Assembly (NCBI GenBank): GCA_030077755.1
Contig: JAQJZZ010000006.1
Location: forward strand, 1-64,000
DNA length: 64,000 bases
Direction of reading: 5' to 3'
Source of the DNA: Filosporella fistucella
Lineage: Eukaryota; Ascomycota; Leotiomycetes; Helotiales
Positions 1 through 58,213 of the stretch are shown here, piece by piece (the stretch's first letter is position 1; each line of letters starts with the position of its first letter). A program made the translations under genes and the position numbers. The notes beneath the pieces were generated by a model that worked only from the letters and a program-made list of their open reading frames with translations, was not told where the DNA came from and did no database searches.

Positions 1-511
1 TCCTTTACACGGTGTAACGGTTAGCGAGCTGCTGTTTCCGGGGGGTTTTGGCCGCTGTTTTTGGGGGTCTGCTAACCAGTGCTCGGCTGACCGCACACCC
101 TGTGCTCTCTGCATCCACGCACCGCTCATGCCAGGGGCCATGCCCCCATTGGCCGCCGACGCGACTGTCCGAGGTTACCCTCCTACGTCTTCTCCTGCCA
201 TCTGTTCATCCAGGCACTCGATTTCGAGAACCCCCGTTTTCTGCTGGTCAACCAAGAAGCCAAAAGAGGCTCCCTCTAGGCCCACACGATCCTAAAGATG
301 TGTTTAAAGGCTGCCCTCGTCCTCTATCCTGACTCTGCATCTATTATTCACCTACTTGCCTACCCCCTATCGATTTCTGTCACCAGAACTCTCGTGGTAT
401 CAGCGGTCCCTTCTCCTCGACTACTATCAACATTTCGACCTCCTTGATCTGGCTGGCAGCTATCTTAATGCCTCTGCCATTTTTAACCCTCCTTGATGCC
501 CGATACAGATT
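1..511. promoter_or_regulatory. Upstream region of the captain gene and candidate Starship 5' end
   Basis: No gene is supported here. The stretch lies directly upstream of a tyrosine recombinase that reads away from it. It holds a short palindrome and a TTAC-N7-A motif at its left edge and a G-rich run near base 40-70. A stop at 494-496, in the frame of the downstream start, rules out an N-terminal extension of that exon. The region probably carries the promoter and 5' leader of the captain. Whether the element boundary is inside it cannot be decided without an empty-site allele. Confidence 0.4.
5..16 (+). other. TTAC-N7-A motif, candidate Starship target-site repeat
   Basis: The bases read ttacacggtgta: TTAC, seven bases, then A. 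TTAC-N7-A is a published target preference for some Starship elements, notably Hephaestus. It lies about 500 bp upstream of a DUF3435 captain that reads inward, where a 5' boundary would be expected. With the following base it forms the palindrome TTACAC-G-GTGTAA. The motif is short and could occur by chance. Confidence 0.3.
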
Positions 512-2950
512 ATGCACCAGCCTCAACACGATGAAGATGACTTGCACGTCGATTACGAGTTCGACAGCTCCAGCGATTCCGAAGCGGACAATCTCTTCGA
601 TAGCGATGATGAGGCGAATCCATCAAGCGACAGCGATCTAGAGAGCATTCTGGAGGAAGTCGGGAATAATACCGATGACGACGATGATCTCTTTGACGAC
701 GAAATACAACACCCACCTGAGTATTATATAGCCAAATCAGACAGTCTCGATGTAGGACGACTCCGGCAAAAGCGTTACAGTCCAAAGACTCAAGATCGTC
801 TTGATTGGGTTAAGGAGCATCATGAGCAGTACGTGGCACAGAGATTCACCCTGCTTAGAATATTCCACTGACCATATTCTGCCCTTAGATACTGTACCTT
901 CATCAGACAACAACCCGCCCAGTGCTTTCACGAAGTCTCGGCCAAATTCCTCTACGGCTTTTTGTGTTGGGTCTGCGATCAGCGACGAGGTAAAGGGGGG
1001 CGGCGACGGCCTGGGATCAAGCATACAAGCTCGCTACAAACATTTTGGAAATGGTACCTCATAGTCCATCGAATCGAGACTGGCAAAAAGATTGATGGTA
1101 TGGTCCAGGTACAAGGTTTTGATGTGAGATGCCTTATGAACTCTGGCTCACCCTCTTACGGTAGAGTCTCCGGCTAACGGATCTTAGGTAGTAAAGACTG
1201 TGGCTGTTGACAAAAACCTCGATAACACAAAGCGGGAGAGTGCCACAATGTACGTCGAGGATTTGGCCGAATATGCCCGTGTACTATTGGCCACAAGAGA
1301 GATGACTTTTAAGCTTGGCTGGCTTCGGATCCAGTTGATTCTCTTTTGCCAGCTTGCAGGCATTACTGGTAACCGTCCAGAGGCTTTGGTCCAACTTCGA
1401 TACCGCGACCTCGAGTTGACTCTGATTCGGGATCACAATAGCTCTCGCCCGCGACTCTTCATTGAGCTCTCGCCCGAGTTCACGAAAGGGTTTCTAGGAA
1501 TGAAGGATGTGTACGTTGCTCTCCCTATCTTCCCTTTCGTCATGTAAGCTAAATATCCTTAGTAACAAATTCAAGATCCCAGAGATTATCTATGACCCGA
1601 CACTTGTGCTTAGCCCTCATACTTTCTTGCTCGGCATGCTCTTTTATATCCAAGCCTTCAAATCCCCTAGTATTACTTCTTCTGAAAAACTATATAGTTT
1701 GAACGTGCTTGACGGATTGAATGAGCAACAGCTCCCTCTCCGGGACGAGTTAAACGATAACTTTATATTTTGTCAAACTATCGACACGGCCTGTGGCGTT
1801 GCGTTGGCACCGTCGTTGCAGCTATCCTCTAATTCAGTCCGCTACAGGATGAAGAAAGGCGGCCAGATTACCGGCTTTGCACAGGTGACAAAGCCATATG
1901 TCCTCCGGGATGGGTCTGCTAAGGGGCTCAATGAGAGTCGTAAGTATCAACTCCAAGCTTTCCAGTTCTTCGACTAATATCATATGCCGTACAGCGGATG
2001 TTAGCGACTCAATGCAGAATTTGATCCTTCAACATTCAAGCATTGACACGTTTCTCAAGCATTACCTCGATCGAAATATCAATGTTGATGTACAAAATAT
2101 CTATCGCGGCCAAGCGCCCCAAAAAGACCTGATGAGATTCGCATGTTCTATGAGCCGTTCCATTGATCCCCGCCGACCACGGAAATTAACCGCCCGACAA
2201 TCAGCATCCATCAATCGCCTTCCATGTATTCTCAGATTGGAGAGCCGAATCGCGAGATCTTCTGGGGTCCGAGAACGCCCTGAGGGAGAGAAAAAGTATC
2301 AGCAAGCTATTCGTCGCCTTCGCAGTGAGAAGCAGCGGCAGCGGAGGCTCCTTTTGCTTGACCTTGTGGAACGTTTTAAGAGGGAGCAGCCGGTGATTGA
2401 TAGCGAGCGGCAGTTATCTGGGAAGGTGGTCGATGAGGACACACGAGACGCACTACAGCGAACAGACCACTTCCCGCCGGAACACCTACTTTTGATAGAC
2501 GCTATCTTGACCCTCCCGCAGACAACTCTGGAGAACGAAACTAGACGGAGGATCGCAGCAATCAACGCGGTAACATCATACTGTGGCATAGAGGAAGGGT
2601 CTCGCTTTCATCCAGTGGATGATGACAATCTTGTGGTTGCCAAAGCCGAAGAGACTGATGCTCTAAGCAAAGCGATACGATCTATCGAGGGGCAAAAGAG
2701 GCCGACCACATGTTGGATCTGTCTTGGGAATCCGGGGTTGACATTGCGCGAGAGGGTTGTCTCTTTCGCGACCCCAGGCTCCTTAAGCAGGCATTTTCTT
2801 AGGAAGCATGTGAGCAAGCTACAAAGAGGGGGTCATGTTGACTGTCAGACTCACAACGTCAGGCTGGAGGACCGAGTACAGCTACTGGTTCACGCAGAGA
2901 TGTTTCACGGAACCATTTCACGCGGTCCGGCTGAGAGATTGATCACATAA
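512..2950 (+). CDS. DUF3435 tyrosine recombinase, Starship captain, five exons
   Basis: Members of this family are captain integrases that mobilise giant Starship transposons by DNA strand exchange in the nucleus. I infer exons 512-828, 889-1108, 1188-1510, 1563-1939 and 1995-2950. All junctions are GT-AG and keep one open frame of about 730 residues; stops in the raw frame fall inside introns. After an acidic N terminus come the core motifs: GNRPEAL with Arg about 242, LRDGSAKGL with Arg about 402, LQHSS with His about 426, and FLKHYLDR with candidate nucleophile Tyr about 436. The family motif SMSRSIDPRRPRKL follows. The C terminus has a basic helical stretch and a Cys/His-rich segment starting CWICLG that looks like a degenerate zinc finger. 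No disabling change was seen. Family assignment is strong; catalytic residues are assigned by eye. Confidence 0.88.
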
Positions 2951-4106: not shown

Positions 4107-7100
4107 TCAGATCGATATTTCATCGGTATGCGCACGTAATAATTGTAATATGGCAAACATATTCTGCCCGTCCTCGGAAGTCACGTCCTTCAAAACTATC
4201 TCTCCATCGTCATCACGTCTCAGGGCTGAGAGCGGTTTCACTTTGCCAATGCAGATCAGGATGCGGCACATTTCTAAATCGCCGAGCCGCACAGCTACCC
4301 GTAATGGGTCTTGTCGCTCGTCCCCACAACGATCATCCCCAATGGCACCGCCTTCCAATAGCAGTATCTGTGCCGACTCATACCGGTCTTGTGAAGCTGA
4401 AGAGAGCCGAATAATCCGTACTAAGGCTGTTTCTTTCTGATAGTCCACCTGGTGTATACCTTCCTTGAAATGGGAAACTAAAAGTCGAAACATAGCAGGA
4501 TTGCAGAGTCTGGATGCCAGGTGCAGAACGTTCTCACCAAGCGAGTTACAGTGTCGAAGGTGTGCTTCAATGCCCTGTTGCCCCAACAAGTACTCCACAA
4601 CATCAACGTGGTTACCCAAGACAGCCTCTCCAACCGATTGATTTACTGGCTTGCCAAAGGACATAAGTTGCGGTTTGCGTGGAGACTCGTGCAGTAATGC
4701 AGTCTTAAGCTCTGCGTTGGTTTGAGCTCTATCCATCAACCGCCGGATTATTGGCATGCAGCCTGTGCTGGCAGCCATACAAAGGAGCTCGTTGCTCCAT
4801 CGCTCCTTTACCATTATGTCTAGCACATTATCGATGAGATCAAATACTATGTCCCAGTTTTGGCGTGATGCATCAGAAATAGACCACTGCTTCACGACGA
4901 GTCGGAAAAACTCAAGGGTCCAAAGCTCATGTCCAATATTACTCTCTGCAAAGAGAATCCTGAGTCTAGAAAGATCACCCCACTGGAGAATTTGGTCAGC
5001 GGCCCCCATCGCGGGTTGAGGGAGAAACATGTCCTTGTCGAAGTTCGACCTCGCAAGCATATCTCGTAGCATTTCCTCTGAACCGTAGAGCGAGGTGATG
5101 CTGAGGGGGTCATAAAGACTACTGTCAAATAAGAATCTAGCCTTGATTGTGCATTGTGGGCGACAGTATTGTTTGATCCAATTCTGTAGTCGAGTTGAGC
5201 GCGCTTGGCATAGAGTCTCTATGTCCTCGAGGCTTGGTAGTGGTTCAACCGTGATGGCGCCGAAGTGCTCAAGCCAATGGCAAGAAGCGTATACGAAGAG
5301 CTCACCAAATCCACGAGCCGTCGGATCATAGCGGATCATCTTTTCTTCCCAAGCTTCCCACGTGCAGAAAGGATCGTAATCGGTTAATTCCTCATCGTCT
5401 TTGAATAGATCAGATTCCTGGGGCAGTTCTTCGATTGCCACCTGCTCTTCAGAAAACAGATCAGTGTAGCCAAAGTCATCCAATAGAAGATACCTGGTAC
5501 AGATATCCAAGATGTTTGCCTCTAGGCTCCTTTTATGTTGATGAGCGAGCCCTTGATCTGTGGTTGGTGAGATAGCCTGACCTCGCAGGCAAGGCCAATT
5601 CGAGGCCCATTGTCTTATGACAAACTCCTTCACCGACTGGTGTACTAGTCTAACTTGACGCTTCTTCACGTCATCAAAATCGATGTGAGCAACAAGTGGT
5701 TGAATTAGACTCATGACTCTCTGGTAATCTACTAGTTTAGCAAGAGCGGCCACGGTGGTAACCCCCTTTCGAGCCGTACCCATCGTGACAGCCCAAGCGA
5801 CCTCTAGTATGCTAAGAGGTCTTCGGGTGGTGGCAAGAACCTCCAAGGCTGTAGTGGCAAGCTTCTGATTTTCAGCATCGTTTGAAGTGCATTGTGAAAA
5901 CAGATTGACGTAGAGTTCTGAGAGCTGCTCAGGGAGCGGTATTTTCTCCAAGAAATCCTGCATTGGGCCAAGTGCCCTGATTCTACGGACTTCGATGAGT
6001 TCAATTATCATCTTCGTCCATATACCACTTCCTTGTGCCAAACGGGATAGTGTCTCTATAACGAGTGCTCTAACGTCCTTCGATAAATTGAATAACTTCG
6101 TCTCGACTGTCTTCTCAACGATAACTCTGTCTCGCTTAGCATCAAAACCCAAATCAATCTTGGATATTCCGTCTAGCTGCCCCAGGACCTCTTCTTGGGG
6201 GCGGGAAGATAAAATAACCTTGAGTCTCGGAGTCTCTTGCGATAATGCTCTCAACGACTTGAGAAGGGTGTTCCTAGATTCTCTATCGCACTCATCCAAG
6301 CCATCAATGAGAATGAAAAGTGGGCGATCGATCATTTTCAGGATGTTTTGCAAAAACTCTTCTAGTTTCTTAACATCTGTCGCTGGCTCAAAATTTCCAG
6401 ATGCCCCGGCCTGCTTATACCATTCGAAAAATGTCCTTTTGAGGCCCGAGAGCTGTTCCAGGAGCGAAAGAAGTAGGGCCGAAAATATGTAGATAGCCTG
6501 GCCAGTCTCGTCGTCCCGGCAATAGTGGTAGCATATCTTGGGCTGAGGCAGTTGGTGCTCATTTCGCCGCCTTAGTTCGTCTACCAGAAAAGCCATCGCA
6601 ACACTTTTCCCAGAGCCCATATCACCAAGGATCACCAACTGCTGGGAATCCGAGGCACGATACCAGCTCATGAACTTGGAATCTGTAAGCAAAAACTCGC
6701 ATGCTTGATCAGCTCGAAGATTCCGCAAATCGCTATGGTGTTTACTCTGCTGACTCATCTTGCCACTACCTAGCCACCTGGCAACTAAGGTTAGGTTAGA
6801 ATAAATCCAACAGAATTCAATCCTAAAACGTACTTTCTTGGTCATAGAGCATAGATTTAATATCTTCAACAATCTCCCACGTCGCTTTCTGGACAAGTTT
6901 TCGGAGATTCTCAGCGTGGCTCAAAAATTCCTGGACAATGTTGGGCAAACGGTCGCTTTCCAAAATCATTTTCATGACCAGTTTTGCTCCTTTCCTGGTT
7001 AAGATCTCAAATGCAGCACTATAGAACTCTAGGAGGTTCTGATATACCAAAACGAGTGCCTGAAAATTGTCAGAAAGGCCTCGAAAGAACACTGCAAATT

Positions 7101-17715: not shown

Positions 17716-19815
17716 TCATGGCATATGCGTTGTGTTGAAGAGACGATTGCCAGTATCGGTGGTGCCTCTACCAGTAAACTTATTGTTGGAGAGACGAAGA
17801 GCAATAATGTCAAGCTTCTGGCTGCGAGCAAGCCCACAGATAGGGCTACCCTCAGAGACGGCCTCGGCCTGGACAACACCGGCAATTATCACGATGCGAA
17901 TAGTGGGATTCAATCTTCGGACGTGTTGCTCGAACTGTACCACGGTTGTGCCATTGTTCACCACTGAATCCACTAGCACTACGGTAGATTGTCCTTGCAA
18001 ATGGTGGAGCTTGATGTCTTCTGGACAACTTGCGTGAACAAACATGGCCAGCGGCAAGATGTCATTAACCCCAAAAGCCATCGGTTCTCCGCCGCGCATG
18101 AGCGCTACAATCGACGTCTTTTGCTCATTTAGCAGTCGATAGCCGCTTGTATGATAACCCTGGACGTGAGATATCGAAAACTCTTCGATGCCAACCACCC
18201 GAGTCAAAAACCTGGTGGCTAGATAATGCCCTACACGGCGATGACTTTCCCTCAAAGCTGGGCCACCAACATCTGCATCTCGCATCGGCGTCATCAGGAG
18301 CTTCGTACCGTTCTGATCCGTTGCGTGATGCACTTGGACCCCAGCTTGTCGACTGCGGTGGCCAAGGACAGAATCGACAAAATCTGGGTCCACTATAGAA
18401 ACCAAGGGAAGCATATTGGTGTTCAGACGGGGCACCGAATCGCTGGGCAGCACAACCTGGCGTGCTTGGAGACCGCCGTCTCGGATCACGTTGAACAACC
18501 CCAAATCCATCGTTCTACTTCTGGTCTTCTCGTCGCCCACGACGACAATAGCCTGGTCTGCCGTGCTCAGCATCTCCAAGTCGAGCAGACTGTCCCCGAA
18601 TGCCCAAACATACATCTGGTGATGATGCTGCAAACGAGCCACCAACGCTGCCTTCAATCCAGCCGTAACGACAAAGCCATCTGCGATACGTCCTCCGGCG
18701 ATGACCTTGACCGCTTTGGAGAGCCCTTCTCTCTCCAACACTTTCTCCCAAACCCGACGCAGTCCACAGCTAATAATCACTGCACCAACATGGCTCTCTT
18801 TCATTACCAATTTCAACAGGGCCAAAAATTCGGGATACATGGTCACCACCGATGCCACCTCGTGGCAGATGGAATCAAACTCTTCATCACCAGCTATCTC
18901 TTCATACAACAAAGTGGCCTGGCGAAAGGCCGTGTAAGAGTAACCCAACGAGCTACCGAATAACGTCTTCAAAGGGGCGTCCCTCCCTGCTGGCTGAGAA
19001 ACGGGAATCTTCTGCCAGAACAACATGCCAGTATCCATTGCAGCCAAGGTCCTGTCGGCGTCCATTACCAACACCGTCTCCAGCTCGGGTTGGCCAGTCA
19101 CTACGGACTCATCCAGAAATCTTTCGGCAAGAGACAAGTTGTAGTCCTCTGTATGATACTGGAAGTCACGTAGCAGCATCAAGACCTTGTCGAGTGGCGT
19201 CGGCTGTGAGACAAGCGAGAACAGAATTCCATGATTGCGGCAGAGACTGCGCAGCTGCGTCTTTTCTTCCTCCTGCCACTTTGATAGATGGCTCAGGGAC
19301 GCAGAAGGGCGATCTCTCGTCGTGTCACCTTGGCGACGTTGCAAGACGATATGGATAGGAACGTCCAGGTAAAGAACGTGCGTAAAGGTTTTGAGGTCGT
19401 TTTGGGTATATACTGGCCTTCCAGCTTCCTCCTCCTCTGGCCAGAACATGAAATGTCCAGCGACAACTGCAACTCGCCCACTAATGGCACACTCATTCCG
19501 AATTGTATCAATAGCAAGCTGCCGCCATTGTACTTTCTTGCCTTCCTCTAGACCCTGGAATGCTTCAAGACCGCCAGGAGAGATCTTGGCAATCATCTCG
19601 GACCCATCATAGAACTCGAAAAGCTCTCTGCGAAGCTCATGCTTCAACAGGTTCAGCAAGAACGTCTTACCAGACCCCGGAAGTCCATATATGCCGACAA
19701 CTACTACTCTCGAGCTAGTAGTGGATGGACTGTTAAGAGTAGCTGAAGGGTCAATTCGAGAATCTGTGGTTGGACCAAGCTTGGTGTTTGATGTGCCTTG
19801 GGAATCGGCAGCCAT
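17716..19815 (-). CDS. P-loop kinase, HAD phosphatase and uracil phosphoribosyltransferase fusion
   Basis: One uninterrupted 699-residue frame carries three enzymes of nucleotide chemistry. Residues 37-215 are a small-molecule kinase-like domain with P-loop GLPGSGKT (44-51). Residues 245-450 are a HAD hydrolase related to phosphoserine phosphatase, with motif I DADRT (252-256) and the late motif GDSLLDLE (407-414). The C-terminal 180 residues match uracil phosphoribosyltransferase: a PRPP-loop-like VLVDSVVNNGTT and the terminal GRGTTDTGNRLFN. Uracil PRTase makes UMP from uracil and PRPP; here the base may differ. I chose the first true ATG at 19815 over an upstream GTG. A second PRTase fusion and a GTP cyclohydrolase lie within 11 kb. 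Confidence 0.85.
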   Translation of the reverse strand: MAADSQGTSNTKLGPTTDSRIDPSATLNSPSTTSSRVVVVGIYGLPGSGKTFLLNLLKHELRRELFEFYDGSEMIAKISPGGLEAFQGLEEGKKVQWRQLAIDTIRNECAISGRVAVVAGHFMFWPEEEEAGRPVYTQNDLKTFTHVLYLDVPIHIVLQRRQGDTTRDRPSASLSHLSKWQEEEKTQLRSLCRNHGILFSLVSQPTPLDKVLMLLRDFQYHTEDYNLSLAERFLDESVVTGQPELETVLVMDADRTLAAMDTGMLFWQKIPVSQPAGRDAPLKTLFGSSLGYSYTAFRQATLLYEEIAGDEEFDSICHEVASVVTMYPEFLALLKLVMKESHVGAVIISCGLRRVWEKVLEREGLSKAVKVIAGGRIADGFVVTAGLKAALVARLQHHHQMYVWAFGDSLLDLEMLSTADQAIVVVGDEKTRSRTMDLGLFNVIRDGGLQARQVVLPSDSVPRLNTNMLPLVSIVDPDFVDSVLGHRSRQAGVQVHHATDQNGTKLLMTPMRDADVGGPALRESHRRVGHYLATRFLTRVVGIEEFSISHVQGYHTSGYRLLNEQKTSIVALMRGGEPMAFGVNDILPLAMFVHASCPEDIKLHHLQGQSTVVLVDSVVNNGTTVVQFEQHVRRLNPTIRIVIIAGVVQAEAVSEGSPICGLARSQKLDIIALRLSNNKFTGRGTTDTGNRLFNTTHMP

Positions 19816-19982
19816 CTTGATAATATTGCAAATGATCACGATTTATGAGTAGTAGAGGTGAAAGAGTATCGGGAGCTGGTTTCATTTATCACTGTCTCCT
19901 TGTTCTTGTCTAACAGGGCATGTATAACCTACTAAGCTGCTTAGTGCATCCCTGGCCGATGAATTAAGACTATACAGTAACG

Positions 19983-20630
19983 ATGTCTAAACCATACACT
20001 GGCTATCTCCAGTCCTACTCTTGTTCATCGCTACGCGCCTGGGCCAATACATTTCACCACGCCTGCAGGAGTCATTACATTGCAGAAACGAATTTCGCCA
20101 ACTTGGGGCCTGTAACTTACTTCGCCGAGTTCAATTTTGTCGGCCTCATAGGCGAGCAATGGATACAGCTGAATCCAGATGTTCTGCCAGTTCGCTACGT
20201 CAAGCGCAATTTAAACGCACTAATCCTTGAGGCCTCCAACCACTTCGAGGCTTGGTACCGGCAACATACGCCCTGCCGTGTAAAGCTGCATCACGATCAA
20301 ATCGAGGACGACAACCACATGCCAGACAACATAAGGCCTACAATTGGGCTGCTTGGTGGACTGCATCGGAATGCTTATTATGGCATCACACTAATTTTGA
20401 GGCCTACAATCGCATTTTCTCCGTGGTGCAGCCCCCACCCATCATATCCAACAGAGTCCGGGATCATGATGCATTACAAAGTAATCCCGCAGATTCAAAA
20501 TGAAAGAATTCGGCTGCAGGATCCACATATTATGCCGGCTAGTGAAGAATGGCCACGACCCTTGGCCCGTCTCGTCTTGTACTCCCACACATGTTGGTTA
20601 TACTTATGCTACCCCAATGAAGTATTTTAA
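19983..20630 (+). CDS. Hypothetical protein, divergent from the UPRTase fusion
   Basis: A 215-codon ORF whose start lies 168 bp from the start of the divergently read kinase-HAD-UPRTase gene. The translation (for example LGPVTYFAEFNFVGLIGEQW) looks protein-like for its first 140 residues and less so later. Unrecognised introns or frame damage are therefore possible. I recognise no domain, signal peptide or membrane segment. A shared promoter with the UPRTase fusion is plausible. Confidence 0.3.
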   Translation: MSKPYTGYLQSYSCSSLRAWANTFHHACRSHYIAETNFANLGPVTYFAEFNFVGLIGEQWIQLNPDVLPVRYVKRNLNALILEASNHFEAWYRQHTPCRVKLHHDQIEDDNHMPDNIRPTIGLLGGLHRNAYYGITLILRPTIAFSPWCSPHPSYPTESGIMMHYKVIPQIQNERIRLQDPHIMPASEEWPRPLARLVLYSHTCWLYLCYPNEVF

Positions 20631-20771
20631 TTTTCAGGAGAGAGATTTTATCATATTTCGTCTTTGATGCATTTGGGAGCAGCCAAACAACTCGCCGCCA
20701 AGTCTACTAGTCTCGGCCTTGTTGACCACCGGCTCGGCGCATCCCTTCGTCTACATCCTCTTTTGCCTATT

Positions 20772-21236
20772 CTACGTCAAGATCCACGCAGCAATCAGGA
20801 AGCCGTCTTCCATTTGCAAGACAGTAGTGCTTAGCGCCTCCTTCTCAGTATCAGCGAGCAATGTTGCCGCCTTCTTGGAAGTGGCAGTGGGCAGCGACGG
20901 CGACGTGGGCAGCCCTACACGGAACCCCTCTTCCATAGTCGATTCATTCAGGGTCATGACTGTTTCGATAAAGCGCTTTTGCATCAATAGCATCTCAGGA
21001 AGTTGCACGACCTTGGGCTTCGGGACTGTCGCTGGACTTTCTGATCCGCACAGCATTATCTCGAGCTGTTGATTGGCCTCGATTAGGACGTGTTGGTTCT
21101 TGTGCATCTTGAGCACCTGTGCAAGCTCCAAAACAGATAGGGTGACAGGCTGGCGTCTTCTGATAAGGATTGGAGTGCTATAAGATTCAGTTTTCTCATG
21201 AGTGACCGTAGTATCGGTCGGACTTGAATCCCCCAA
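20772..21236 (-). CDS. Hypothetical protein, possibly partial
   Basis: An open frame of 154 codons on the minus strand with a Ser/Thr-rich N terminus. A helical segment (LSVLELAQVLKMHKNQHVLI, later PEMLLMQKRFIETVMTLNES) could form a short coiled coil. There is no ATG at the beginning of the frame, so an upstream exon may exist within 21240-21420. No family is recognised. It sits convergent to the ORF at 19983 and divergent from the RNase III-like gene. Confidence 0.25.
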   Translation of the reverse strand: MGDSSPTDTTVTHEKTESYSTPILIRRRQPVTLSVLELAQVLKMHKNQHVLIEANQQLEIMLCGSESPATVPKPKVVQLPEMLLMQKRFIETVMTLNESTMEEGFRVGLPTSPSLPTATSKKAATLLADTEKEALSTTVLQMEDGFLIAAWILT

Positions 21237-21634
21237 GTGATCGTTGTGCAGATCCCGTTAGCCATCGCGCATATGAAGCGAGGATGATACGGAGTGTGGT
21301 CGGCAGATTGGATGCTTCCCACAGGGTCTCGGACGAGACGAACCAGTGTGAAAATGAAGTGAGATTGGCTCATGTACAGACCGCCATAGCCGTGCAATTT
21401 ATGTGAATCGTCCCACCTCATCTCTGGGATGCATCATGGCCATCTGGCACATCAACACCCAGCTCACTAGGCCCAATGCGGGACTAAATACAGCATGCCA
21501 AAATTTTCTGTAGTTAGCTCTCAAAATAGATTAGCGCTTTATCGAGAGCCTTGTAAGTTGGCGACCACTTTTTAGCACGAAATCCCACAGCTCTTGTGAA
21601 TTCAGACTTGCTTCAGATTCCTCCTAACAAAAAG

Positions 21635-23381
21635 ATGGATACGACAAATTATTTAGAAGAAGTTCTTGGTTATCATTTTCGTGCAAAGTCTGTGCTTGCC
21701 AAAGCCTTGACGGCGCCAGGTGCAGAAGGAGACAAAGAAGGGACAGCAGAAGAGAAAGTCAAATACGAAGGTAATCGTTTGCTTGCTGACTCTGGTAAAT
21801 GTGTCCTTCCATTGTTGGCTCTCAGAAGGAATTACTCGGAAAGAAACTCGGAAAATGGTATGTCTGGGAATAGCATAATCAAATTCGTCTTGACAGCCTG
21901 CAGGCAGCACTACAAAGAACGCCTTAGAGTGTGCTATAGCGGCGAAGGACTATACAGATAGAGCAACTGCGCTCCACATCCCTAGCAACATAAAGCTCAG
22001 CCCTAGACAGCGCGGCGTCGCAGCGCCGGGAACACTACGGCAAGCTATCTACGCTCTTATTGGCGCGGTCTGGCAAGATTCGGGCGAGAATTTTCTCTGG
22101 ACAGAAAAGGCTGTTGAGCGTCTCTTGTGAGTATTCGATGCTTGTGGTATATAGACTATTGACAATGTCGTGCAAAGTATCGGTACAGAGGTGCCGCTTG
22201 AGATAAATTCCGGAAGAGTCGCTTCGAATCCCACGAATCTCAACTGTGCCAATTCTGGATCGCCTCTTCTACCTCGACAGAGAACATTAAGTTCTGGATC
22301 ATACAACTACACTTCGACAATGACAGAAGGACTGGAGGGAAACTGGCATCAGCTCCAACCTGGCCAAGACTCGGCGATTGAAACGGCTCCGAAGAAGCGG
22401 AAAACTTGGACAAGCAGTTCCGAGTCACGACAAACGATCTGGTTGAATAGGTGCTTGGCTCGGGAAGAGCAAAGATGTCTAATGTTTGGAATACCCTTCT
22501 GTCCGATGGACATTGGTATAGCGGTCAATGGTTTGCAAATCCCTCCAGGAGACAGTGGTTTGGCGATTAAGACCTTGTCTTACGTGATTGCAAGCCCCGA
22601 ATCCATTGTTGCCCTGCAGGAGGTTATCATGGCGCAACGAACGTCTATTGCAAACAAGCAGTTCACATGTGACTGCGACCTCTCGCTCGCAGATCGATTG
22701 AAGGCCATTGAGGATGCAGGATCTGAGATTGCCTACCTTGTCTTCCTCAAAAGGTGCCACACATATCAGCTGTTTGTTGATTGCAGCAAAGGCTCACGAA
22801 GAACAAGCGACGGTTTTGTTGTAGACACGGTACAAAGCGTCTCGAAACAAACAGGTTCTCGGCTTGGAAATCCTCAGAACCTCGAAGATTCTACGATTGC
22901 CGAAGAGATCATCAAGGAGGTATATCCTAACCTGAATCCAGGCACGGTCCTATACCAGAAAAAAAAGCGATTCGTTCACCGATTGCGCAAGCTTGGAGAA
23001 CGCCTCGATGTGTTAGTAAAGAGCTTTGGTTATGGTATACTGGGTCTGCTTTCTTGGCCGCGAGGCCACTTACTTGATCCGCCAGCCTTTTCGAATACTG
23101 ATGAGCTGTATGTCATCCATTTCTATGTTATGATGCCATTACTAACAGTACCAAGTATGCTATCTCTCTCCGACAAGGCATTCAAGTCACTAGTTCTTTA
23201 TCTCAAACAGGTACAAAACGATTCCATCTATGCGACTAGTACTGCAGTTTCCGAGCTCGTGATAGCACTTTTCCGCGGCACATTGAACCCCACAATAGTA
23301 TCGAGTCTCGAAATGACTGATTCGTTGAGAATTCTAGAATATCCAAAGGGATCTGCGATGCTGCTTGATTTAGTTTCTTAA
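21635..23381 (+). CDS. RNase III-like domain protein with degenerate active site
   Basis: Exons 21635-21857, 21904-22126, 22178-23107 and 23156-23381 give 533 residues with all introns GT-AG (46-51 nt). The last intron is a multiple of three and may be retained. Residues 1-175 match fungal RNase III-like domains: VLGYHFRAKSVLAKALTAPG at the start, then KYEGNRLLADSGKCVL, and ALIGAVWQDSG near the end. Where active enzymes have a GDA/GDS motif this protein has GKC. The usual Glu before ALIGA is Tyr. It is therefore probably a non-cleaving dsRNA-binding or dimerising module. The remaining 360 residues have no recognised fold; they contain a basic PKKRK segment that could be a nuclear signal. Confidence 0.6.
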
Positions 23382-25876
23382 CCCAGGTAGATTGAATAGC
23401 AAGTTCAACCATTATGGCAGGAACGTAGGCATGTCTCTGATACAGCTGAGTGGGAAGTTGCCAGACCAAATGCAATATATTTGGGTTTGGTTGAGGACTA
23501 GGAGGTTGATCCACACGGGACCTCTGGGAAGAGAAGGAGGGGCTTGCGAACTCAGCTTTTTCTGATGGGGTTGGGAGAAGCCGGGGCTCTTCATATAACA
23601 TAACGTAGGCTCATGGTGCTCCTCGACGGCCAACTGCTTCCAATTTTTGAAATGCTGGCTATCTGCTAACCTCGGTTCTTGTGATATGATGCAGGGCACG
23701 AACATTACCGCCCCCACCACCCGTTCTCGCCGGACAATCACCAGCGTAAACAAACAACGTTGTACTACCCTGCCTTCGTATACTTCTATACTAATCGACA
23801 CTGAAGTATGCACATCTCAAGTCACCGCGCACCTACACCCTACGTCCCTACCAAAGGTTACGTTCCACTAAGCCTTCTTCCAAGCGATGGCTGCTACTCT
23901 TGCATAATCTACACCCGGCTGAATATTCTTCGCAATGGTCTGAATATTCGATTTCGGAGAATTGGGAGAATAGGCTTAGAAGCTCCATGGTGTCCAACGA
24001 CTCGATCTTGGGCCATAGTATAGTTAGTAATCCTCGGCGCTGCTTCGTTTACACCAAACACCCCGGCGAACATTGTAGTATTGGAGTAAAGAACAAGCGA
24101 CGGAGAAGAATTGAGGAAAAACTTATGACCTCCTTTATGCGGAGGTGGAGTGATGCCGGCTTTGTTGTGGATTGTACTTCGGAACACTAGCTATATAGCC
24201 ACCATGAGCCATACAAAGATCAAGAGTTCCATATTCATCTTCAAATCGATTAATCTTGCAGAGCGCGCCAGTTGCTGCTTACATCTCATCTCCAATCTCT
24301 TGCATTATTTGGTAGGATTTGGCCGTAGCTCTTCCTATGGGAGTGTCAGCTCTTGGTTTTAAATGCTGGAAATGTTCGTCTCCTTTGAATTCTTCTGTCC
24401 CTTTGATGTATATCAGCTTTTTTTATTGCGGCCTTCTTTGCGAGAATTGAACGGGCATATGCTTTAAGTTCCTTAAGCACGGCATAAACTAGCTCTGTCT
24501 AGGGAAGGTGCTGGTAGAAGATTATAATAGGTGACGGCTTCATGACTGAGCCAGTCTCGATGACTTCAACAGGGGCTTTCAACTCGATTACATAGATTGT
24601 CCTTATCTATGTCGAAGATACGAGAAATAATTAGTTACTTAAATCAGGATAAGGATGTTTAGCTCACTAATTTTCCGGGCTCATTTTGCTGAGGTTGGGT
24701 TTAGGTGAATGGAAATTCAACAAGAAAGAGCATCTTAGCAACGAGCTATTTTGGTGTTCTCGAACAAGACGATTCAATGCGTTGTTGGTGTGGTGGTACA
24801 GGGTCACGTTTCTCACAATTTTGTCCCCATTTGCCAAGCGGTGCATTACAATCCAACACTCTCATTGGAACTGTCACTTGATTTGGTCATCTTGTGGTCA
24901 GAAGCGGCATCAGCCCTTCTCAGGTATTGGGTTTCGTATTACCACGAATATTGCAGAGCATATGAGCTGTCTGCCCCACTCTGGACCACTCCGAGAAAGC
25001 CATGGACTAGCATTGAAGAGGTGCGGTTGCTCGACCCAATGCCATCCTGCCTTGAACTTTTTCATTTCTCTCTACATGAGAGCTCGTTCCCTTACAGATC
25101 AAGGCACCCGTCACACATTCAGATCAATGATCGAATCTACAAACAGGCACGTTCATTGCATACATTTGAACGTGTCTGGGGTCGACTGTCTATGTTGGGT
25201 TGATTTTAAAGGTTGATGATGCCCTGGCTATTAGGCATATATTCAGGACCCAAGTTAGTACATGAGGTGTTCAGGAGCTCGTCGAAAAGGCAGACCTTTT
25301 TTCCGGAGTACAAGATGGTTTGGTTCTACGCCGCAATATCAAATCAAAGATTCGTTTCAGCTGTAAACTACCTTTGGCGGGAGGGTGTGCCTTCCGCCGA
25401 CGTTTTTCCAAACTTGTATCGCACGTCACTTATCTTCATCAACCTCCACAGGTGTAGCAATCTCCCTTGGAGGTGCTCACTATTCCGGGTAATAACAACA
25501 CTGTCCGCAGAATAATCTCGTCTGCTGGTGAAGCTCAATCGAATCACTGGGCTCGGCCTAGGCAGACCGGGCACGCCCAGCTCGTCCATAGGCGCAGCCT
25601 GCAGCCATTCAACTGTCCAGGCCAAAGCTGGGTTTCTGGCCCCCGGGCACGAAGATTACTACATATATGTGTGAAACTCCTGGTCGCGGGTCGAAGAACG
25701 TTCCACACCACAACTTCTCGTACTCTCTTTTCACCTGATGAACCTGTATTTAACTTGGCCACCCAATATCCCAATAAGCTAGTCACAGGCTCTTGGTATC
25801 CGAAGATAAAGATATCAGATTGTGAATTCGGTGTTTTGCACGGGTAGTCCCCGAAATCACGCACCTAGGCGCGAGT
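23382..25876. other. Intergenic 2.5 kb with a possible minus-strand remnant
   Basis: No intact gene is supported. On the minus strand about 24360-24650 reads YVIELKAPVEVIETGSVMKP, then after one stop VYAVLKELKAYARSILAKKA. It is protein-like and may be a decayed gene. Two overlapping plus-strand ORFs at 24686-25216 compete in different frames and neither is recognisable. Confidence 0.35.
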
Positions 25877-26725
25877 ATGAATAACAGCAACAACAACCAT
25901 GGCGCGACTGACGACGAAGGATACAACGACAGTGATGTAACGAAAAGACTGCCAGTTACGAGCTGGGAGCCAGATCCCAATACTCAGCACGCGATCAATT
26001 CTGATGGTTTGAGTTGGCCCAGTAGGTGAAGTCGCGAGCGTGCAGCTACAGCCTTACTGACAGATCAAGGCCGAGGAACGCTCAAGCGAAAGGGGGCGAC
26101 CAAGAAGGAACAGGAGGAACGGCTGAGCAAGCTAGCAGCCGCTGTAAGGACGATCCTGGAGTGTGTGGGCGAGGATCCTGACCGAGAGGGGCTGCTTGAT
26201 ACACCCGAACGCTACGCAAAAGCTATGCTCTTCTTCACCAAGGGCTACGAAGAGAATCTACACAACATTGTGAATGGTGCTATCTTCCACGAAGACTATA
26301 ATGGGATGGTTATTGTGAAAGATCTCGAATTCTCTTCGCTGTGCGAGCACCACCTCGTGCCGTTCTCCGGGAAGGTATAATGACGGAGCATATTCCACAT
26401 TTTTGATGGCTAATAACGATAGATGCACATCGGATATATTCCCAACCGCCAAGTCATTGGGCTCTCCAAAATTGTTAGGATAGTGGAAGTATTCTCGCGG
26501 CGACTTCAAGTCCAAGAGCGGCTCACAAACCAGGTCTCTTGTGCCCTTTCCCAGATAATCCAACCGCATGGCGTTGGCGTAGTTGTGGAGTCCAGTCACC
26601 TCTGCATGGTGATGCGCGGGGTTCAAAAATCCGAAGCAATCACAACCACTATCTGCATGCTCGGCCGGCTGCAATCGACTGTTAATTCGAGGGAGGAATT
26701 TTTAAACCTTATTGGCCGCAAGTAA
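25877..26725 (+). CDS. GTP cyclohydrolase I
   Basis: This enzyme opens the GTP ring to 7,8-dihydroneopterin triphosphate, the first step of folate, biopterin and 7-deazaguanine pathways. Exons 25877-26021, 26070-26374 and 26423-26725 give 250 residues with 48-nt introns. Family landmarks are all present: [20 protein letters not shown], the zinc site [10 protein letters not shown] with Cys and His ligands, HIGYIP...[16 protein letters not shown], and the second zinc Cys in [12 protein letters not shown]. The N-terminal 60 residues are low-complexity. It looks functional. An extra copy next to two PRTase fusions suggests a dedicated pathway rather than housekeeping folate synthesis, but whether the genome has another copy cannot be seen here. 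Confidence 0.93.
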
Positions 26726-27189
26726 GAGGATGCGACTGAATAATAGAGCCATATCGGGAAATTAGGTAGCAAATAAATCCAACTAGTAAATGGAGAAAGA
26801 CAATATGATCATCACCATCAGAGCCACACTTCCTTGTTGACAAACCGCGCAATTTGATGGCTATTGGAATGAGAGTTGGTCGTAGTATTCTTCCGCTCAG
26901 GCAAACGAAAATACTTATGAACGTCGCACAGCTTCCAGCAGGGTTCTGATCATGGCATTTAGCAGCCTTGATTGTTGGTTGGTGTGGGTTGTGTTGGTTG
27001 AGCATTCATTTACACGAGATTGCTCCCGATTGAGCATAGCGTTGCTGCATGAGGTGCAGCAGTCAGCCCTCCTTTTTGCTGGCTCATCAACTTCTTAAGG
27101 TCTGTTTCGAAGCCCGAAGGTTTGCCTCGAGCACATATCAACCATAATCGCTATAAGTCTTGCAATATACTTTCATTCTTAGATCGGAG
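26726..27189. promoter_or_regulatory. Intergenic between GTP cyclohydrolase and the large fusion gene
   Basis: About 460 bp between two genes on the same strand. It probably holds the 3' end of the first and the promoter of the second. No conserved element was recognised. Confidence 0.35.
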
Positions 27190-30100
27190 ATGACGACCCT
27201 CGAATCCCTGAAACAAGCACTTAGAAATGAAGTCGAGATATCGGCATCATCACTCAAACAACCATTGTCTGACATTCAATACAGAGCCGGCTTCAATATC
27301 TTGGTTAAAGGCCCAGGATGGAAGACCTACCAAGAATTCATCATTCCTCAAATATCTCAGCTGCTATCTCCTGTCTTCAACATGCGTCTCCAGATCTCGG
27401 TTCTAGAAATCGGGCCAGGCCCGAAGAGCCTCCTTGGGTTTCTTCCGGAATATCTTAGGAGGAAGATCAAAAAGTACACTGCGTTCGAGCCTAACGGCTT
27501 GTTTTCCGGGAGCTTGGGAGAGTGGTTCAAGATTGAGTCACCGTTTCCTTGCCTAGAAAGTTCCCCAAACATCCATCACTCCCCATTCATTCTACAGGAT
27601 GATGTAAGGGTGGACCTCGGACCAAGTACAATGAATAATGACTCACGATACGACATCATCTTATTCTGCCATAGCATGTATGGTATGAAGCCCAAAAACA
27701 AGTTCATCGAGCAGGCGCTGGGAATGCTCGTGCAGCGGCCACAAATCGGAATGGTGGTAGTTCTACATCGTGATGGAGCTTTGCACCTCGACGGCTTGGT
27801 GTGCCACCGGACGGCTTGTTATCCTACTGGAGTGGTCAGTGTAGCAGATGATGACGAAGTGCTAGATTGTTTCGCCTCTTTCGTTGCAGGATTTACTATG
27901 AAAGATGCGGGATTGAACAATGATATTCGAGTCCGTTGGCGCAAGGTGTGCCGAAATTTGAGCCGTCAAGAGGAAAACCCCCATGGCCATCTCTTGTTTA
28001 GCTCGCCAAACATCATGGTGGCATTTACCCAACGCTCCAATAGCCTACCGGAGCTACTGGCCCAAGTACCACAGGCAGAGAGACACGGGGTTGTCAAGAA
28101 CTGGGAGGCTCGACTCCACTCTCCTGGCTCAACCGTGAGGCCGGCTGGAGTGGGAGACGTCCAGAAGTGCGTTAGATGGGCTCTAGAGAACAAAACTGGC
28201 CTGGCCGTTATTGGTGGGGGTCACAGCGGCCACTGTCGTTGGCCCAACGTCGTTTCAATCGATATGGGGGCTTTCAACCACGTACACGTTATCACGGCCA
28301 GAGGTGACGAAGAGAGCTCCATTTCCAATCCCGGTTCAGTGGTTGTCGCCGAAACTGGCTGCAAGGCAGGGGATATCATCAGCAAGGCCATGACGGCAAG
28401 ATTAACAATACCTCTAGGGGCACGCCCGAGTGTAGGTGCAGGACTTTGGCTGCAAGGTGGCATTGGACACCTGGTAAGACTGTACGGACTCACCTGCGAC
28501 GCAATCGTCGGTACAGTGGTAGTTAGCGTCAAATCCGGCCAGGTCCTCTACATCGGCGATGTCCCAAGCCAGCATCGGCCAGCTGGTGCTATACGCCCGG
28601 AAAATGAACGTGATCTCTTGTGGGCGATGAGAGGCGCTGGGACCAATTTCGGCATCGTGGTCAGTGTCGTTTTTAGAGCGTACGAGGCTCCGACTTATTG
28701 CATTCGAAATTGGGTTCTGCCGGTGGGCGACAAACTTAAGGCGCGGCTTATGCTTAGCAAGTTCAATACACTTGTCGCTAGTGAGCTTCCACGAAATTTT
28801 TCTGCAGACGCATATCTCTATTGGGACAAGGACCAGCTACATCTTGGCGTGACCATGTTCGAAGCTTCGACATCCATGCTTACCCTTGAGTTGCCAATAT
28901 CTATAAGTCAAACTCTAGGGCTGGAACGCAGTTCAAAGGTTGTAGACAGCATCGGTCTATTCGATGCCGATATGTACATGTCTGGAATGCACGGCGGGCA
29001 TGGCAACGGTAAGACTTCCTCGTTCAAGCGGTGTCTGTTCTTGAAGGAGATTGGGGCGGTCGATGTCGCCACTATCTTGGTGGAAGCTATTGCGACTCGG
29101 CCCTCACCCCTATGCTACCTCCATCTGCTACAAGGTGGGGGGGCGGTCGGTGATTTGGCTGTTGATGCCACTGCTTTTGGCTGTCGAGGCTGGGACTTTG
29201 CCTGCGTCGTGACTGGTATATGGCCTCGTAACCAAGATGGTGCCGATGCCTCTCAAGCTGTTGTGCGGTGGGTGTACAGTGTTGCTACGAGCCTCTTGCC
29301 GCTGAGTAGCGGAGCTTATGGCGCCGACCTTGGGCCAGATCCACGAGACGCAGCACTGGCGACTGTTGCTTTTGGACAAAACGGTCCACGCCTGGCGGAT
29401 CTAAAACACAGCTTAGACCCGCAGAACGTGCTGGCATACGCGTGTCCGCTTCCAGAGGCAGCCATACAACCAAAACTTATCATTCTTGTCACAGGCGAAA
29501 GCTGTGCTGGTAAGGATTTTTGTGCCGCCGTGTGGGTCTCTATGTTCACCAGATGCACACACATGAGCCTCACGGCACGGGCCGTGAGCATCAGCGACGT
29601 AACCAAGCGAGAATACGCAGCAGCTACCGGTGCTGACCTGAATCGCCTGCTGTGGGATCGTGCCTACAAGGAGCAACACCGGCCAGCGCTGACGACATTT
29701 TTCGAGAGCCGCGTGCGGCAAAAACCACAGCTGCCAATTGAGAACTTTCTATATGTTGTGAATAGTGCGGCAGATGTCGACGTGCTGATAATCACCGGCA
29801 TGAGAGATGAAGCGCCCCTAGCAACCTTGTCGCACTTGGTTTCAGATAGCAGACTGCTCGAGATTCGCGTTGAGGCTAGCCATAAGACGCGGCAGATTCG
29901 CCGTGGTGATGGTAGTAGTGACAGCAACCACGATGACAACACCGGCAACAATAGCAGGCCAAATTCCGTGGCCATGGACTTCCAGCCTAGTCTCATCTTC
30001 TTCAATAACACGACAGGACACGATGCTGTAAGAAGCTTTGGCGAAGAATACCTGCTTCCGTTCGTTGGCTTGGAGCTGAAGCGATTGTGCAGTATGGTGA

Positions 30101-30654
30101 GCCAGGTAAACGGCTTCCCTCACTCGGGCATCAACTTCCGCCATGTTCTGGGGATCTCCCAGAAGCCGGGCGGACTGGCCTTATGCACAACTCTACTTCG
30201 AACACACTTCATTGGTGATTGGGCCAAAGTCGGTGCCATTGCGTGTTGCGAGGTTGGTGGCTTTGTCTTCGCGTCAGCTCTGGCCTCATGGATCGATGTT
30301 CCCTTGTTACTCATACGTGAAGTGGGCAAGCTTCCTCGCCCTACTTTATCTGTCACCAAATCCTCATCGTACATCTCGTCATTTGGATCTGACGATTTGG
30401 GAGAGGAGCGTTTCGAGATGGGGAGGGATATAATTCCTAAGGACGTATCAGTGGTAGTAGTGGACGATGTACTTTCTACAGGTAAGACACTTTGTGCGGT
30501 ACTCCAACTGTTAAAAAACGATGGCATCTCTATTGAGCGTATTAGCGCCATGGTCGTGGCCGAATTCCCTATACATCGTGGCCGAGGTCTGTTGCGCGAC
30601 CGAGGATTTGGTAGAGTTCGTATTCAAAGTCTTCTAGTCTTTAGTGGGGCTTAG
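27190..30654 (+). CDS. Methyltransferase-like, FAD-linked oxidase, P-loop kinase and phosphoribosyltransferase fusion
   Basis: A single intronless frame of 1154 residues. Residues 1-290 are class I methyltransferase-like, with VLEIGPGP (71-78). Residues 310-765 are a PCMH/FAD_binding_4 flavoenzyme: GGGHSGH near 341 provides a His for covalent flavin, ARPSVGAGLWLQGGIGHL follows, and the domain closes with a BBE-like LADLKHSLDPQNVLAY. Residues 768-960 are a P-loop kinase with TGESCAGKD, resembling phosphomevalonate-kinase-type folds. Residues 990-1154 are an adenine-type PRTase with PRPP loop VVVVDDVLSTGKT near 1087. Combined, it could methylate, oxidise, phosphorylate and ribosylate a base. 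The ORF begins with an in-frame TTG at 27160; the first ATG is used. The same pairing of kinase and PRTase occurs in the gene at 17716. Confidence 0.82.
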   Translation: MTTLESLKQALRNEVEISASSLKQPLSDIQYRAGFNILVKGPGWKTYQEFIIPQISQLLSPVFNMRLQISVLEIGPGPKSLLGFLPEYLRRKIKKYTAFEPNGLFSGSLGEWFKIESPFPCLESSPNIHHSPFILQDDVRVDLGPSTMNNDSRYDIILFCHSMYGMKPKNKFIEQALGMLVQRPQIGMVVVLHRDGALHLDGLVCHRTACYPTGVVSVADDDEVLDCFASFVAGFTMKDAGLNNDIRVRWRKVCRNLSRQEENPHGHLLFSSPNIMVAFTQRSNSLPELLAQVPQAERHGVVKNWEARLHSPGSTVRPAGVGDVQKCVRWALENKTGLAVIGGGHSGHCRWPNVVSIDMGAFNHVHVITARGDEESSISNPGSVVVAETGCKAGDIISKAMTARLTIPLGARPSVGAGLWLQGGIGHLVRLYGLTCDAIVGTVVVSVKSGQVLYIGDVPSQHRPAGAIRPENERDLLWAMRGAGTNFGIVVSVVFRAYEAPTYCIRNWVLPVGDKLKARLMLSKFNTLVASELPRNFSADAYLYWDKDQLHLGVTMFEASTSMLTLELPISISQTLGLERSSKVVDSIGLFDADMYMSGMHGGHGNGKTSSFKRCLFLKEIGAVDVATILVEAIATRPSPLCYLHLLQGGGAVGDLAVDATAFGCRGWDFACVVTGIWPRNQDGADASQAVVRWVYSVATSLLPLSSGAYGADLGPDPRDAALATVAFGQNGPRLADLKHSLDPQNVLAYACPLPEAAIQPKLIILVTGESCAGKDFCAAVWVSMFTRCTHMSLTARAVSISDVTKREYAAATGADLNRLLWDRAYKEQHRPALTTFFESRVRQKPQLPIENFLYVVNSAADVDVLIITGMRDEAPLATLSHLVSDSRLLEIRVEASHKTRQIRRGDGSSDSNHDDNTGNNSRPNSVAMDFQPSLIFFNNTTGHDAVRSFGEEYLLPFVGLELKRLCSMVSQVNGFPHSGINFRHVLGISQKPGGLALCTTLLRTHFIGDWAKVGAIACCEVGGFVFASALASWIDVPLLLIREVGKLPRPTLSVTKSSSYISSFGSDDLGEERFEMGRDIIPKDVSVVVVDDVLSTGKTLCAVLQLLKNDGISIERISAMVVAEFPIHRGRGLLRDRGFGRVRIQSLLVFSGA

Positions 30655-57503: not shown

Positions 57504-57570
57504 AACAAATGGTAGAATTGGTAAAGGTGAGCAGGAGGATGAAGCTGCGGCGGTGCCAAATCGAATGACG

Positions 57571-58134
57571 TGTACAATGAGTAGGTGTACAAACTGGGTA
57601 GGGTGTACAAACTGGGTTGGGTGTACAAACTGAGTAGGGTGTACAAACTAGGTTGGGTGTACAAACTGAGTAGGGTGTACAAACTGAGTAGGGTGTACAA
57701 ACTGAGTAGGGTGTACAAACTGGGTTGGGTGTACAAACTAGGTGGGTGTACAAACTGAGTAGGGTGTACAAACTGAGTAGGGTGTACAAACTGAGTAGGG
57801 TGTACAAACTGAGTAGGGTGTACAAACTGAGTAGGGTGTACAAACTGAGTAGGGTGTACAAACTGAGTAGGGTGTACAAACTGGGTTGGGTGTACAAACT
57901 GAGTAGGGTGTACAAACTAGGTTGGGTGTACAAACTGAGTAGGGTGTACAAACTGAGTAGGGTGTACAAACTGAGTAGGGTGTACAAACTGAGTAGGGTG
58001 TACAAACTGGGTTGGGTGTACAAACTAGGTTGGGTGTACAAACTGAGTAGGGTGTACAAACTGGGTTGGGTGTACAAACTGAGTAGGGTGTACAAACTGG
58101 GTTGGGTGTACAAACTGGGTTGGTGTACAAACTG
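57571..58134. repeat. 18-bp minisatellite, about 31 copies
   Basis: The unit is gtgtacaaactgagtagg. Variant units have gggttgg or aggttgg in place of gagtagg. Variants are interspersed rather than clustered, as expected after unequal exchange. Because 18 is a multiple of three and no unit contains a stop in several frames, long false ORFs appear on both strands. A one-base-short unit near 57742 shifts the frame. The array fills the space between the divergently read DUF3723 gene and pseudokinase gene. Confidence 0.95.
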
Positions 58135-58213
58135 AGGGTATAAAAACTGAGTAGATCATCCCAGATGGTCTATGAACCTAATTTCGATCATCTCGCTTTA
58201 AGCCCCAAATATC

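What the first reader, a model, noticed from the sequence alone, without database searches (positions are those of the whole stretch)
17716..30654. Candidate undescribed nucleotide-chemistry island
Within 13 kb lie a kinase-HAD-uracil PRTase fusion, an RNase III-like protein, GTP cyclohydrolase I, and a methyltransferase-like-FAD oxidase-kinase-adenine-type PRTase fusion. GTP cyclohydrolase, PRTase and HAD phosphatase are the recurring enzymes of pyrrolopyrimidine nucleoside pathways (toyocamycin ToyD, ToyH, ToyI). QueD/E/C-like enzymes are not seen here. The set could make, salvage or destroy a modified base, or act as a nucleotide-based defence.
Basis: partly seen in the sequence, partly recalled or inferred. 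Interest (0 to 1): 0.9.

Follow-up and report, generated by a model that had tools for sequence, protein, structure and literature searches.

The report
Nucleotide-enzyme cargo of a giant transposon
The unusual nucleotide-chemistry genes look like cargo of a complete giant fungal transposon (a Starship); two of them form an old, undescribed gene pair kept in several distant fungi, and the third is a fused relative of a rare gene cassette found near defence-type genes and in phage contigs of bacteria and archaea.

Summary
The window is the first 64 kb of a 179,086-bp contig (C5) that looks like a Starship transposon from end to end: captain recombinase first, both ends matched by a second, chromosomally inserted relative on C15, plus DUF3723 and NLR genes. 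The island is its cargo. The GTP cyclohydrolase is a second copy, not the canonical one (on C11). Its orthologues lie on the same contig as the methyltransferase-oxidase-kinase-PRTase fusion (P0002) in 8 of 8 testable fungi, so these two are an old pair. The kinase-HAD-PRTase fusion (P0001) is widespread but shares a contig with P0002 in 3 of 8. In 16 prokaryotic and phage loci its parts occur as separate or part-fused genes, with a radical-SAM gene beside them in 10 (three of these called by eye, one below cut-off), and PIN-ankyrin or Mokosh-type helicase genes in several. Best reading: Starship cargo for making a ribosylated pteridine-like metabolite; the Starship part is strong, the chemistry inferred (about 0.35). 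7-deazapurine synthesis is not supported. The RNase III-like label is weak. Literature searches found no earlier description.

The parts
3..26 (.). left end of the Starship: homology with the second element (C15) starts at nt 3; TTAC(N7)A motif at 5-16; inverted 10-mer ACGGTTAGCG at 17-26, its reverse complement at contig C5 179065-179074
1254..2581 (+). captain tyrosine recombinase (DUF3435); matched stretches 1254-1538, 1564-1944, 1991-2581 cover profile 1-418 without stops inside the matches
4107..6920 (-). NACHT/ankyrin NLR-type protein, a gene class noted in Starships
   Evidence: PMC12134995 passages
17716..19815 (-). P0001: adenylate-kinase-like kinase + HAD phosphatase + UPRTase-like PRTase fusion, 699 aa
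21635..22130 (+). weak RNase III-like ORF, 149 aa, one intron modelled at 21858-21903; not shown to belong to the set
25877..26725 (+). GTP cyclohydrolase I, second copy of the genome; exons modelled 25877-26006, 26064-26374, 26423-26725
27190..30654 (+). P0002: methyltransferase-like + flavin oxidase + phosphomevalonate-kinase-like + APRT-like fusion, 1154 aa
55339..57347 (-). DUF3723 protein, a gene class reported as prevalent in Starships; one stop inside a matched stretch
   Evidence: PMC12134995 passages

Best explanation
The island is cargo of an apparently complete, about 179-kb Starship transposon. Shown: captain first and pointing inward; both ends conserved with a second element inserted in C15; the cyclohydrolase is a paralogue whose orthologues lie on the same contig as P0002 in eight other fungi of several classes. 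Inferred: the cyclohydrolase and P0002 make a pteridine- or purine-like base from GTP (cyclohydrolase: dihydroneopterin triphosphate; P0002: methylation, flavin oxidation, phosphoribosylation from PRPP, phosphorylation). P0001 carries out a second PRTase, phosphatase and kinase step, so that the product is a ribosylated pteridine-like metabolite. A fungal compound of this type exists (asperopterin A of Aspergillus oryzae, a pteridine glycoside), with no genes known to me. Sub-confidences: Starship cargo 0.93; cyclohydrolase plus P0002 an old functional pair 0.85; ribosylated pteridine-like product 0.35; P0001 in the same pathway 0.3.
For: Starship: DUF3435, DUF3723, NLR; both C5 ends match both ends of a 123,862-bp span of C15, to within 2 nt of the contig ends; inverted 10-mer at the ends. 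Pair: cluster-type cyclohydrolase and P0002 homologue have the same species and contig length in Leptodontidium, Cadophora, Sarcosagium, Orbilia, Lineolata, Zopfia and Stipitochalara (7, the latter over all 120 rows of each list), and form one gene model in Rutstroemia (P0220): 8 of 8 testable. Canonical-type cyclohydrolase rows of species in both lists: 0 of 5. All 9 linked copies (window and Rutstroemia included) fall in one 19-row group of the 123-row tree (SH-aLRT 85). Function kept: 16 of 373 near-invariant P0002 columns differ in the window; by eye none is a P-loop, PRPP-motif or SAM-motif residue or the flavin His345, though 350 lies beside it. Chemistry: FolE equivalog; APRT-like with an intact PRPP motif and a BBE/6-HDNO-like flavin domain. 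Asperopterins: PMC6208954 passages.
Against: No product is known. APRT-type enzymes make N-glycosides, whereas asperopterin A is an O-glycoside (recalled). P0001 shares a contig with P0002 in only 3 of 8 species, so a common pathway is not shown. P0002 (end branch 0.4) and the cyclohydrolase (0.88) of the window evolve fast while P0001 does not (0.047), which speaks against one tightly coupled unit or suggests relaxed constraint; both differ at more near-invariant columns than any other listed row (16 vs at most 14; 20 vs at most 15). Label clustering on the cyclohydrolase tree was not significant by the tool's measure (91 of 500 shuffles as low). Linkage in 7 of 8 genomes is by contig, some of them megabases long, not by coordinates. 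P0002's structure model is poor (mean pLDDT 53.5) and its methyltransferase assignment is sub-threshold. C5 has no flanks, so insertion site and target duplication were not seen; no clear direct repeat was found at C15 either.
Confidence: 0.4

Rival explanations
1. P0001 is independent of the cyclohydrolase-P0002 pair: a fused eukaryotic form of a prokaryotic conflict cassette (radical SAM, kinase, HAD, PRTase) that makes or removes a nucleotide analogue, or acts on damaged RNA ends, and serves defence in fungi or on the Starship.
For: Each P0001 domain separately matches the corresponding gene of the prokaryotic cassette, in the same order. A radical-SAM gene adjoins it in 10 of 16 loci: L045, L047, L050, L051, L055 (of the 11), L068, and L064-L067 (the 4). 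Above the Pfam cut-off in L047, L050, L055, L064, L067, L068; below it in L045; L051, L065, L066 called by reading the ORFs. Conflict-type neighbours: MkoA-like helicase in L050, L051, L055, DrmD-like helicase in L055, PIN-ankyrin in L047, L064, L067, L068, Roc-COR-Schlafen in L053. Patchy spread: 3 of 392 genomes of one archaeal phylum at 1e-30, two of them loci already in hand.
Against: No radical-SAM-like gene seen on C5 by a motif scan, which could miss split exons. P0001 occurs in many fungi of several classes, which looks more like metabolism than a patchy defence gene. The radical-SAM proteins are not shown to be viperins: maturase families score higher, and every match lies below its cut-off. 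No radical-SAM gene seen beside the trio in L048 and L052; unresolved or truncated in L046, L049, L053, L054. No phage test exists.
Confidence: 0.3
2. The cargo boosts ordinary pteridine/folate and base salvage: an extra cyclohydrolase, two salvage PRTases and, about 105 kb away on the same element, an extra FolC-type folylpolyglutamate synthase.
For: FolC-type gene at C5:135777-136664 (-), 259.9 bits against a cut-off of 162.65, one stop inside the matched stretch; the genome holds 5 such matches. The cyclohydrolase is a FolE equivalog.
Against: Both PRTases and the mevalonate-type kinase fall far below the equivalog cut-offs for upp, apt and phosphomevalonate kinase. Plain salvage does not explain a four-domain fusion with a flavin oxidase. 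The extra folC is far from the island.
Confidence: 0.2
3. A toyocamycin/queuosine-like 7-deazapurine pathway.
For: Cyclohydrolase, PRTase and HAD phosphatase recur in those pathways (recalled). In one archaeal relative locus QueE/QueD/QueC-like ORFs lie about 2.5 kb upstream of the trio (L051:589-2857, read by eye).
Against: No QueD-, QueE- or QueC-like domain among the 46 of 80 larger C5 ORFs scanned (count of ORFs) and no radical-SAM-like gene by motif scan. The L051 Que-like ORFs lie on mixed strands with other ORFs between, and none was seen in the fetched part of the closely similar L050 locus.
Confidence: 0.06

Closest known systems
Starship giant transposons (captain DUF3435)
   Same: captain as first gene at the left end, DUF3723, NLR-type and GH18 cargo, inverted ends, TTAC(N7)A motif resembling the Hephaestus-family target, size 179 kb
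   Different: this cargo (GTP cyclohydrolase, PRTases) did not co-occur with the word Starship in 2 full-text searches; the contig ends at the element ends, so target duplication is unseen
Asperopterin A/B of Aspergillus oryzae
   Same: fungal pteridine glycoside; fits cyclohydrolase, methyltransferase, oxidase and PRTase plus phosphatase chemistry
   Different: genes unknown to me; glycoside type and producer differ; structural details recalled
Toyocamycin cluster / queuosine precursor pathway
   Same: cyclohydrolase I, PRTase and HAD phosphatase together (recalled)
   Different: no QueD/E/C-type enzyme or radical SAM seen on the parts of C5 scanned
URC uracil-degradation pathway of yeasts (recalled)
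   Same: a UPRTase works with a GTP-cyclohydrolase-family enzyme
   Different: that is a cyclohydrolase II type; here type I; not tested further
Mokosh and prokaryotic viperin defence systems
   Same: the prokaryotic cassette of P0001's relatives lies near MkoA-like helicases in three loci and beside radical-SAM enzymes
   Different: the radical-SAM enzymes match maturases better than viperins; the HAD and PRTase proteins tested matched no PADLOC model at E<=0.01

Membership tests
Starship | captain DUF3435 tyrosine recombinase as first gene at the 5' end, pointing inward | tested here: met
   profile 1-418 covered in C5:1254-2581 (+)
Starship | discrete element boundaries, shared between copies | tested here: met
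   C5 nt 3 and 179084 match C15 1660360 and 1784221
Starship | flanking short direct repeats | tested here: inconclusive
   C15 flanks read, no clear repeat by eye; C5 has no flanks
Starship | terminal inverted repeats (18 of 20 A. fumigatus elements, PMC12153272 passage) | tested here: met
   10-mer at 17-26 and 179065-179074; only partly kept in C15
Starship | mobility or presence/absence polymorphism | not testable with these tools
   one genome only; no other strains held
GTP cyclohydrolase I (FolE) | NCBIfam TIGR00063 equivalog cut-off | tested here: met
   249.1 vs 181.6 bits
uracil phosphoribosyltransferase (upp) | TIGR01091 equivalog cut-off | tested here: not met
adenine phosphoribosyltransferase (apt) | TIGR01090 equivalog cut-off | tested here: not met
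   76.8 vs 185.85 bits; PRPP motif intact
animal-type phosphomevalonate kinase | TIGR01223 equivalog cut-off | tested here: not met
   22.9 vs 188.15 bits; Pfam PF04275 met, 74.8 vs 33.8
queuosine/toyocamycin 7-deazapurine pathway | QueD-, QueE- or QueC-like enzymes with the cyclohydrolase | tested here: inconclusive
   none among 46 of 80 larger C5 ORFs scanned and no radical-SAM-like motif gene; small exons not scanned
prokaryotic viperin (for the radical SAM beside P0001's relatives) | NF038283 equivalog cut-off | tested here: not met
   L050 rSAM2 52.3 vs 180 bits; PapB maturase scores higher, 128.6

The most novel reading that the evidence does not exclude
A Starship carries a fungal nucleotide-analogue system: the cyclohydrolase-P0002 pair supplies an exotic base, and P0001, a fused relative of a phage- and defence-associated kinase-HAD-PRTase cassette, turns it into an active nucleotide that protects the element or its host against viruses or rival elements.
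Probability: 0.1. Interest if true: 0.92.

Novelty: new variant of a known kind. Interest (0 to 1): 0.66.

Why it matters
It links three things that I did not find linked in the literature searched: a giant transposon, an old conserved fungal gene pair with no assigned product, and a rare prokaryotic and phage cassette whose function is open. It offers short testable questions: what the pair makes, and what the cassette does to phages. If the product is a ribosylated pteridine, it would give genes to a class of fungal compounds known since the 1960s.

Tried and rejected
Viperin reading of the radical-SAM neighbours: suggested by PADLOC pVip hits, dropped after NCBIfam put peptide and sulfatase maturases or MoaA first. 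Deazapurine reading: see rivals. P0002 in prokaryotes: 8 genomes that hold the P0001-like genes gave only single APRT-like or flavin-oxidase matches in 6, none in 2. P0001 in plasmids: none at 1e-10; cassette PRTases in plasmids and phage records: none at 1e-20 and 1e-15. With the fungal profile, 1 of 195 genomes of the Myxococcus phylum at 1e-15, the starting genome itself. P0002 fold model poor. A spliced captain model was tried by script and failed; its exons are given by profile match only. Papers: full-text searches gave 0, 0, 0, 0, 2, 1 and 0 papers; nothing that I saw of them describes these fusions. Searches (17, 4 and 132 papers) were for Starships and pteridines and were seen as listings. 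Passages only were read of PMC12153272, PMC12134995, PMC6208954, PMC11291487 and PMC13092281.

Linkage counts: species in both top-120 lists of P0001 and P0002 with apparently one assembly are Cadophora, Venustampulla, Rutstroemia, Zopfia, Glonium, Lepraria, Icmadophila and Chlorociboria (for Glonium the listing does not prove one assembly). Dropped before counting because the assemblies differ: Trichoglossum and Hyaloscypha variabilis. One search compared only part of the rows; one search repeated it with all 120 rows of each list and changed no named pair. Of the 5 canonical cyclohydrolase rows, the Trichoglossum one may come from another assembly than its P0002 row. The lists are cut at 120, so these are not surveys. 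DUF3435 and DUF3723 also match elsewhere in this genome (12 and 19 stretches), so each alone is not specific to C5.
Full report

The setting. The window is nt 1-64000 of contig C5 (179,086 bp) of a 45.8-Mb genome in 19 contigs. DUF3435 is covered in full at C5:1254-2581. A second captain lies on C15 at 1661650-1662977; further DUF3435 and DUF3723 matches lie on C7, C9, C10 and C15. C5 aligns from nt 3 to C15:1660360 at 86%, and C5 178753-179084 aligns to C15:1783894-1784221 at 71%. Homology therefore stops within 2 nt of both ends of C5, and the C15 relative spans 123,862 bp inside a chromosome-size contig. ACGGTTAGCG and its complement lie at 17-26 and 179065-179074; TTAC(N7)A lies at 5-16, a motif that occurs about 9 times per 10 kb of C5 and is weak alone. 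The paper passages read name captain, DUF3723, NLR genes and the TTAC(N7)A target. Other cargo includes GH18, JmjC-SET, C2H2, chromo, PD-(D/E)XK and 2EXR proteins (46 of 80 non-overlapping C5 ORFs of 150 aa or more were scanned in all). No other copy of the island genes was found in the genome except degenerate P0001-like copies on C18 and C7, single-domain matches to P0002, and the canonical cyclohydrolase; none of these lies inside the C15 element.

An old pair. P0002 has 1079 homologues at E<=0.001 among 7999 scored; all 120 listed carry the three Pfam domains at 64-71% identity, from several classes (classes recalled). The window cyclohydrolase is not the canonical one (C11). Of species present in both lists with a cluster-type cyclohydrolase, 8 of 8 have it on the contig of P0002: seven by species and contig length, Rutstroemia by one gene model that runs from a cyclohydrolase into the P0002 homologue (P0220; probably two adjacent genes merged by the annotator). 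Canonical-type rows from Zopfia, Lineolata, Glonium, Lindgomyces and Trichoglossum share it in 0 of 5. All nine linked copies, window included, sit in one 19-row group of 123 (support 85, unstarred). The tool's own clustering measure for that label was not significant (91 of 500 shuffles as low); the group also holds ten rows whose linkage is unknown. The window copies are long-branched (0.88 and 0.4), P0001 short (0.047). Near-invariant columns that differ in the window: P0001 1 of 172, P0002 16 of 373 (other rows: median 5, most 14), cyclohydrolase 20 of 135 (other rows: median 0, most 15).

P0001 and its prokaryotic counterpart. P0001 has 1328 homologues at E<=0.001 among 7996 scored. It shares a contig with P0002 in Venustampulla (locus tags 06853 and 06877), Rutstroemia (62.5-kb contig) and Lepraria (tags 121 apart), 3 of 8; no contig length is shared between the P0001 and cyclohydrolase lists. 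A scan of prokaryote genomes gave 11 loci; a phage-contig scan gave 4; one more archaeal locus came and was fetched as L068. The kinase, HAD and PRTase parts are separate or part-fused neighbouring genes where they could be read, each matching the corresponding P0001 domain (24 translated genes tested). Radical-SAM genes adjoin in 10 of 16 loci: above the Pfam cut-off in L047, L050, L055, L064, L067 and L068, below it in L045, and called by reading the ORFs in L051, L065 and L066. None was seen in L048 and L052; L046, L049, L053 and L054 are truncated or unresolved. Conflict-type neighbours. Spread is patchy: 3 of 392 genomes of one archaeal phylum at 1e-30, of which two are L047 and L049 again.

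Reading. Starship cargo is the firmest part. The pair is old and, by conservation, functional. What it makes is inferred: cyclohydrolase fixes a pteridine start; P0002's oxidase keeps the likely flavin-binding His (345) but has Arg where bicovalent enzymes have Cys (alignment; motif knowledge recalled); its APRT-like domain keeps the PRPP motif. Asperopterin A, a pteridine glycoside of A. oryzae, shows that such compounds exist in fungi. P0001 may belong to this pathway or may be a separate conflict-derived enzyme; the data do not decide.

Novelty. No paper found in the searches listed describes the fusions, the pair or this cargo. The element is a Starship; the cargo and the prokaryotic link are new to me.

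Noticed in passing
contig C5:135777-136664 (-), outside the window (L030:1792-2682): Extra FolC-type folylpolyglutamate synthase gene on the same Starship; the genome has 5 such matches (C1 two, C18, C9, C5).
   Followed up: partly
G000:C15:1660360-1784221: Second, chromosomally inserted Starship of the same captain type, about 124 kb, with a DUF3723 gene at 1681602-1683104; no island gene match inside it.
   Followed up: partly
G000:C18:469672-470658 and C7:162890-164365: Degenerate P0001-like copies (73-75% and 40-47% protein identity; the C18 copy lacks the middle, the C7 copy has a stop).
   Followed up: no
L064-L067, L047, L068: Phage-contig and archaeal cassette of (HTH-)PIN-ankyrin, radical SAM, kinase-HAD and PRTase; no name found; serine recombinases by eye in L065-L067.
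   Followed up: partly
L051:589-2857: QueE-, QueD- and QueC-like ORFs about 2.5 kb upstream of the kinase-HAD-PRTase operon in a Lokiarchaeota MAG (read by eye).
   Followed up: no
57570-58154: Tandem array, 18-bp unit GTGTACAAACTGAGTAGG, 32.9 copies, 90% matches.
   Followed up: no
L053:1386-4115: LRR-Roc-COR-Schlafen protein gene between the HAD and PRTase genes of the cassette in a Bacteroidetes MAG.
   Followed up: no
contig C5:69307-72174 (L023:5307-8174, -): JmjC-SET fusion protein among the Starship cargo.
   Followed up: no
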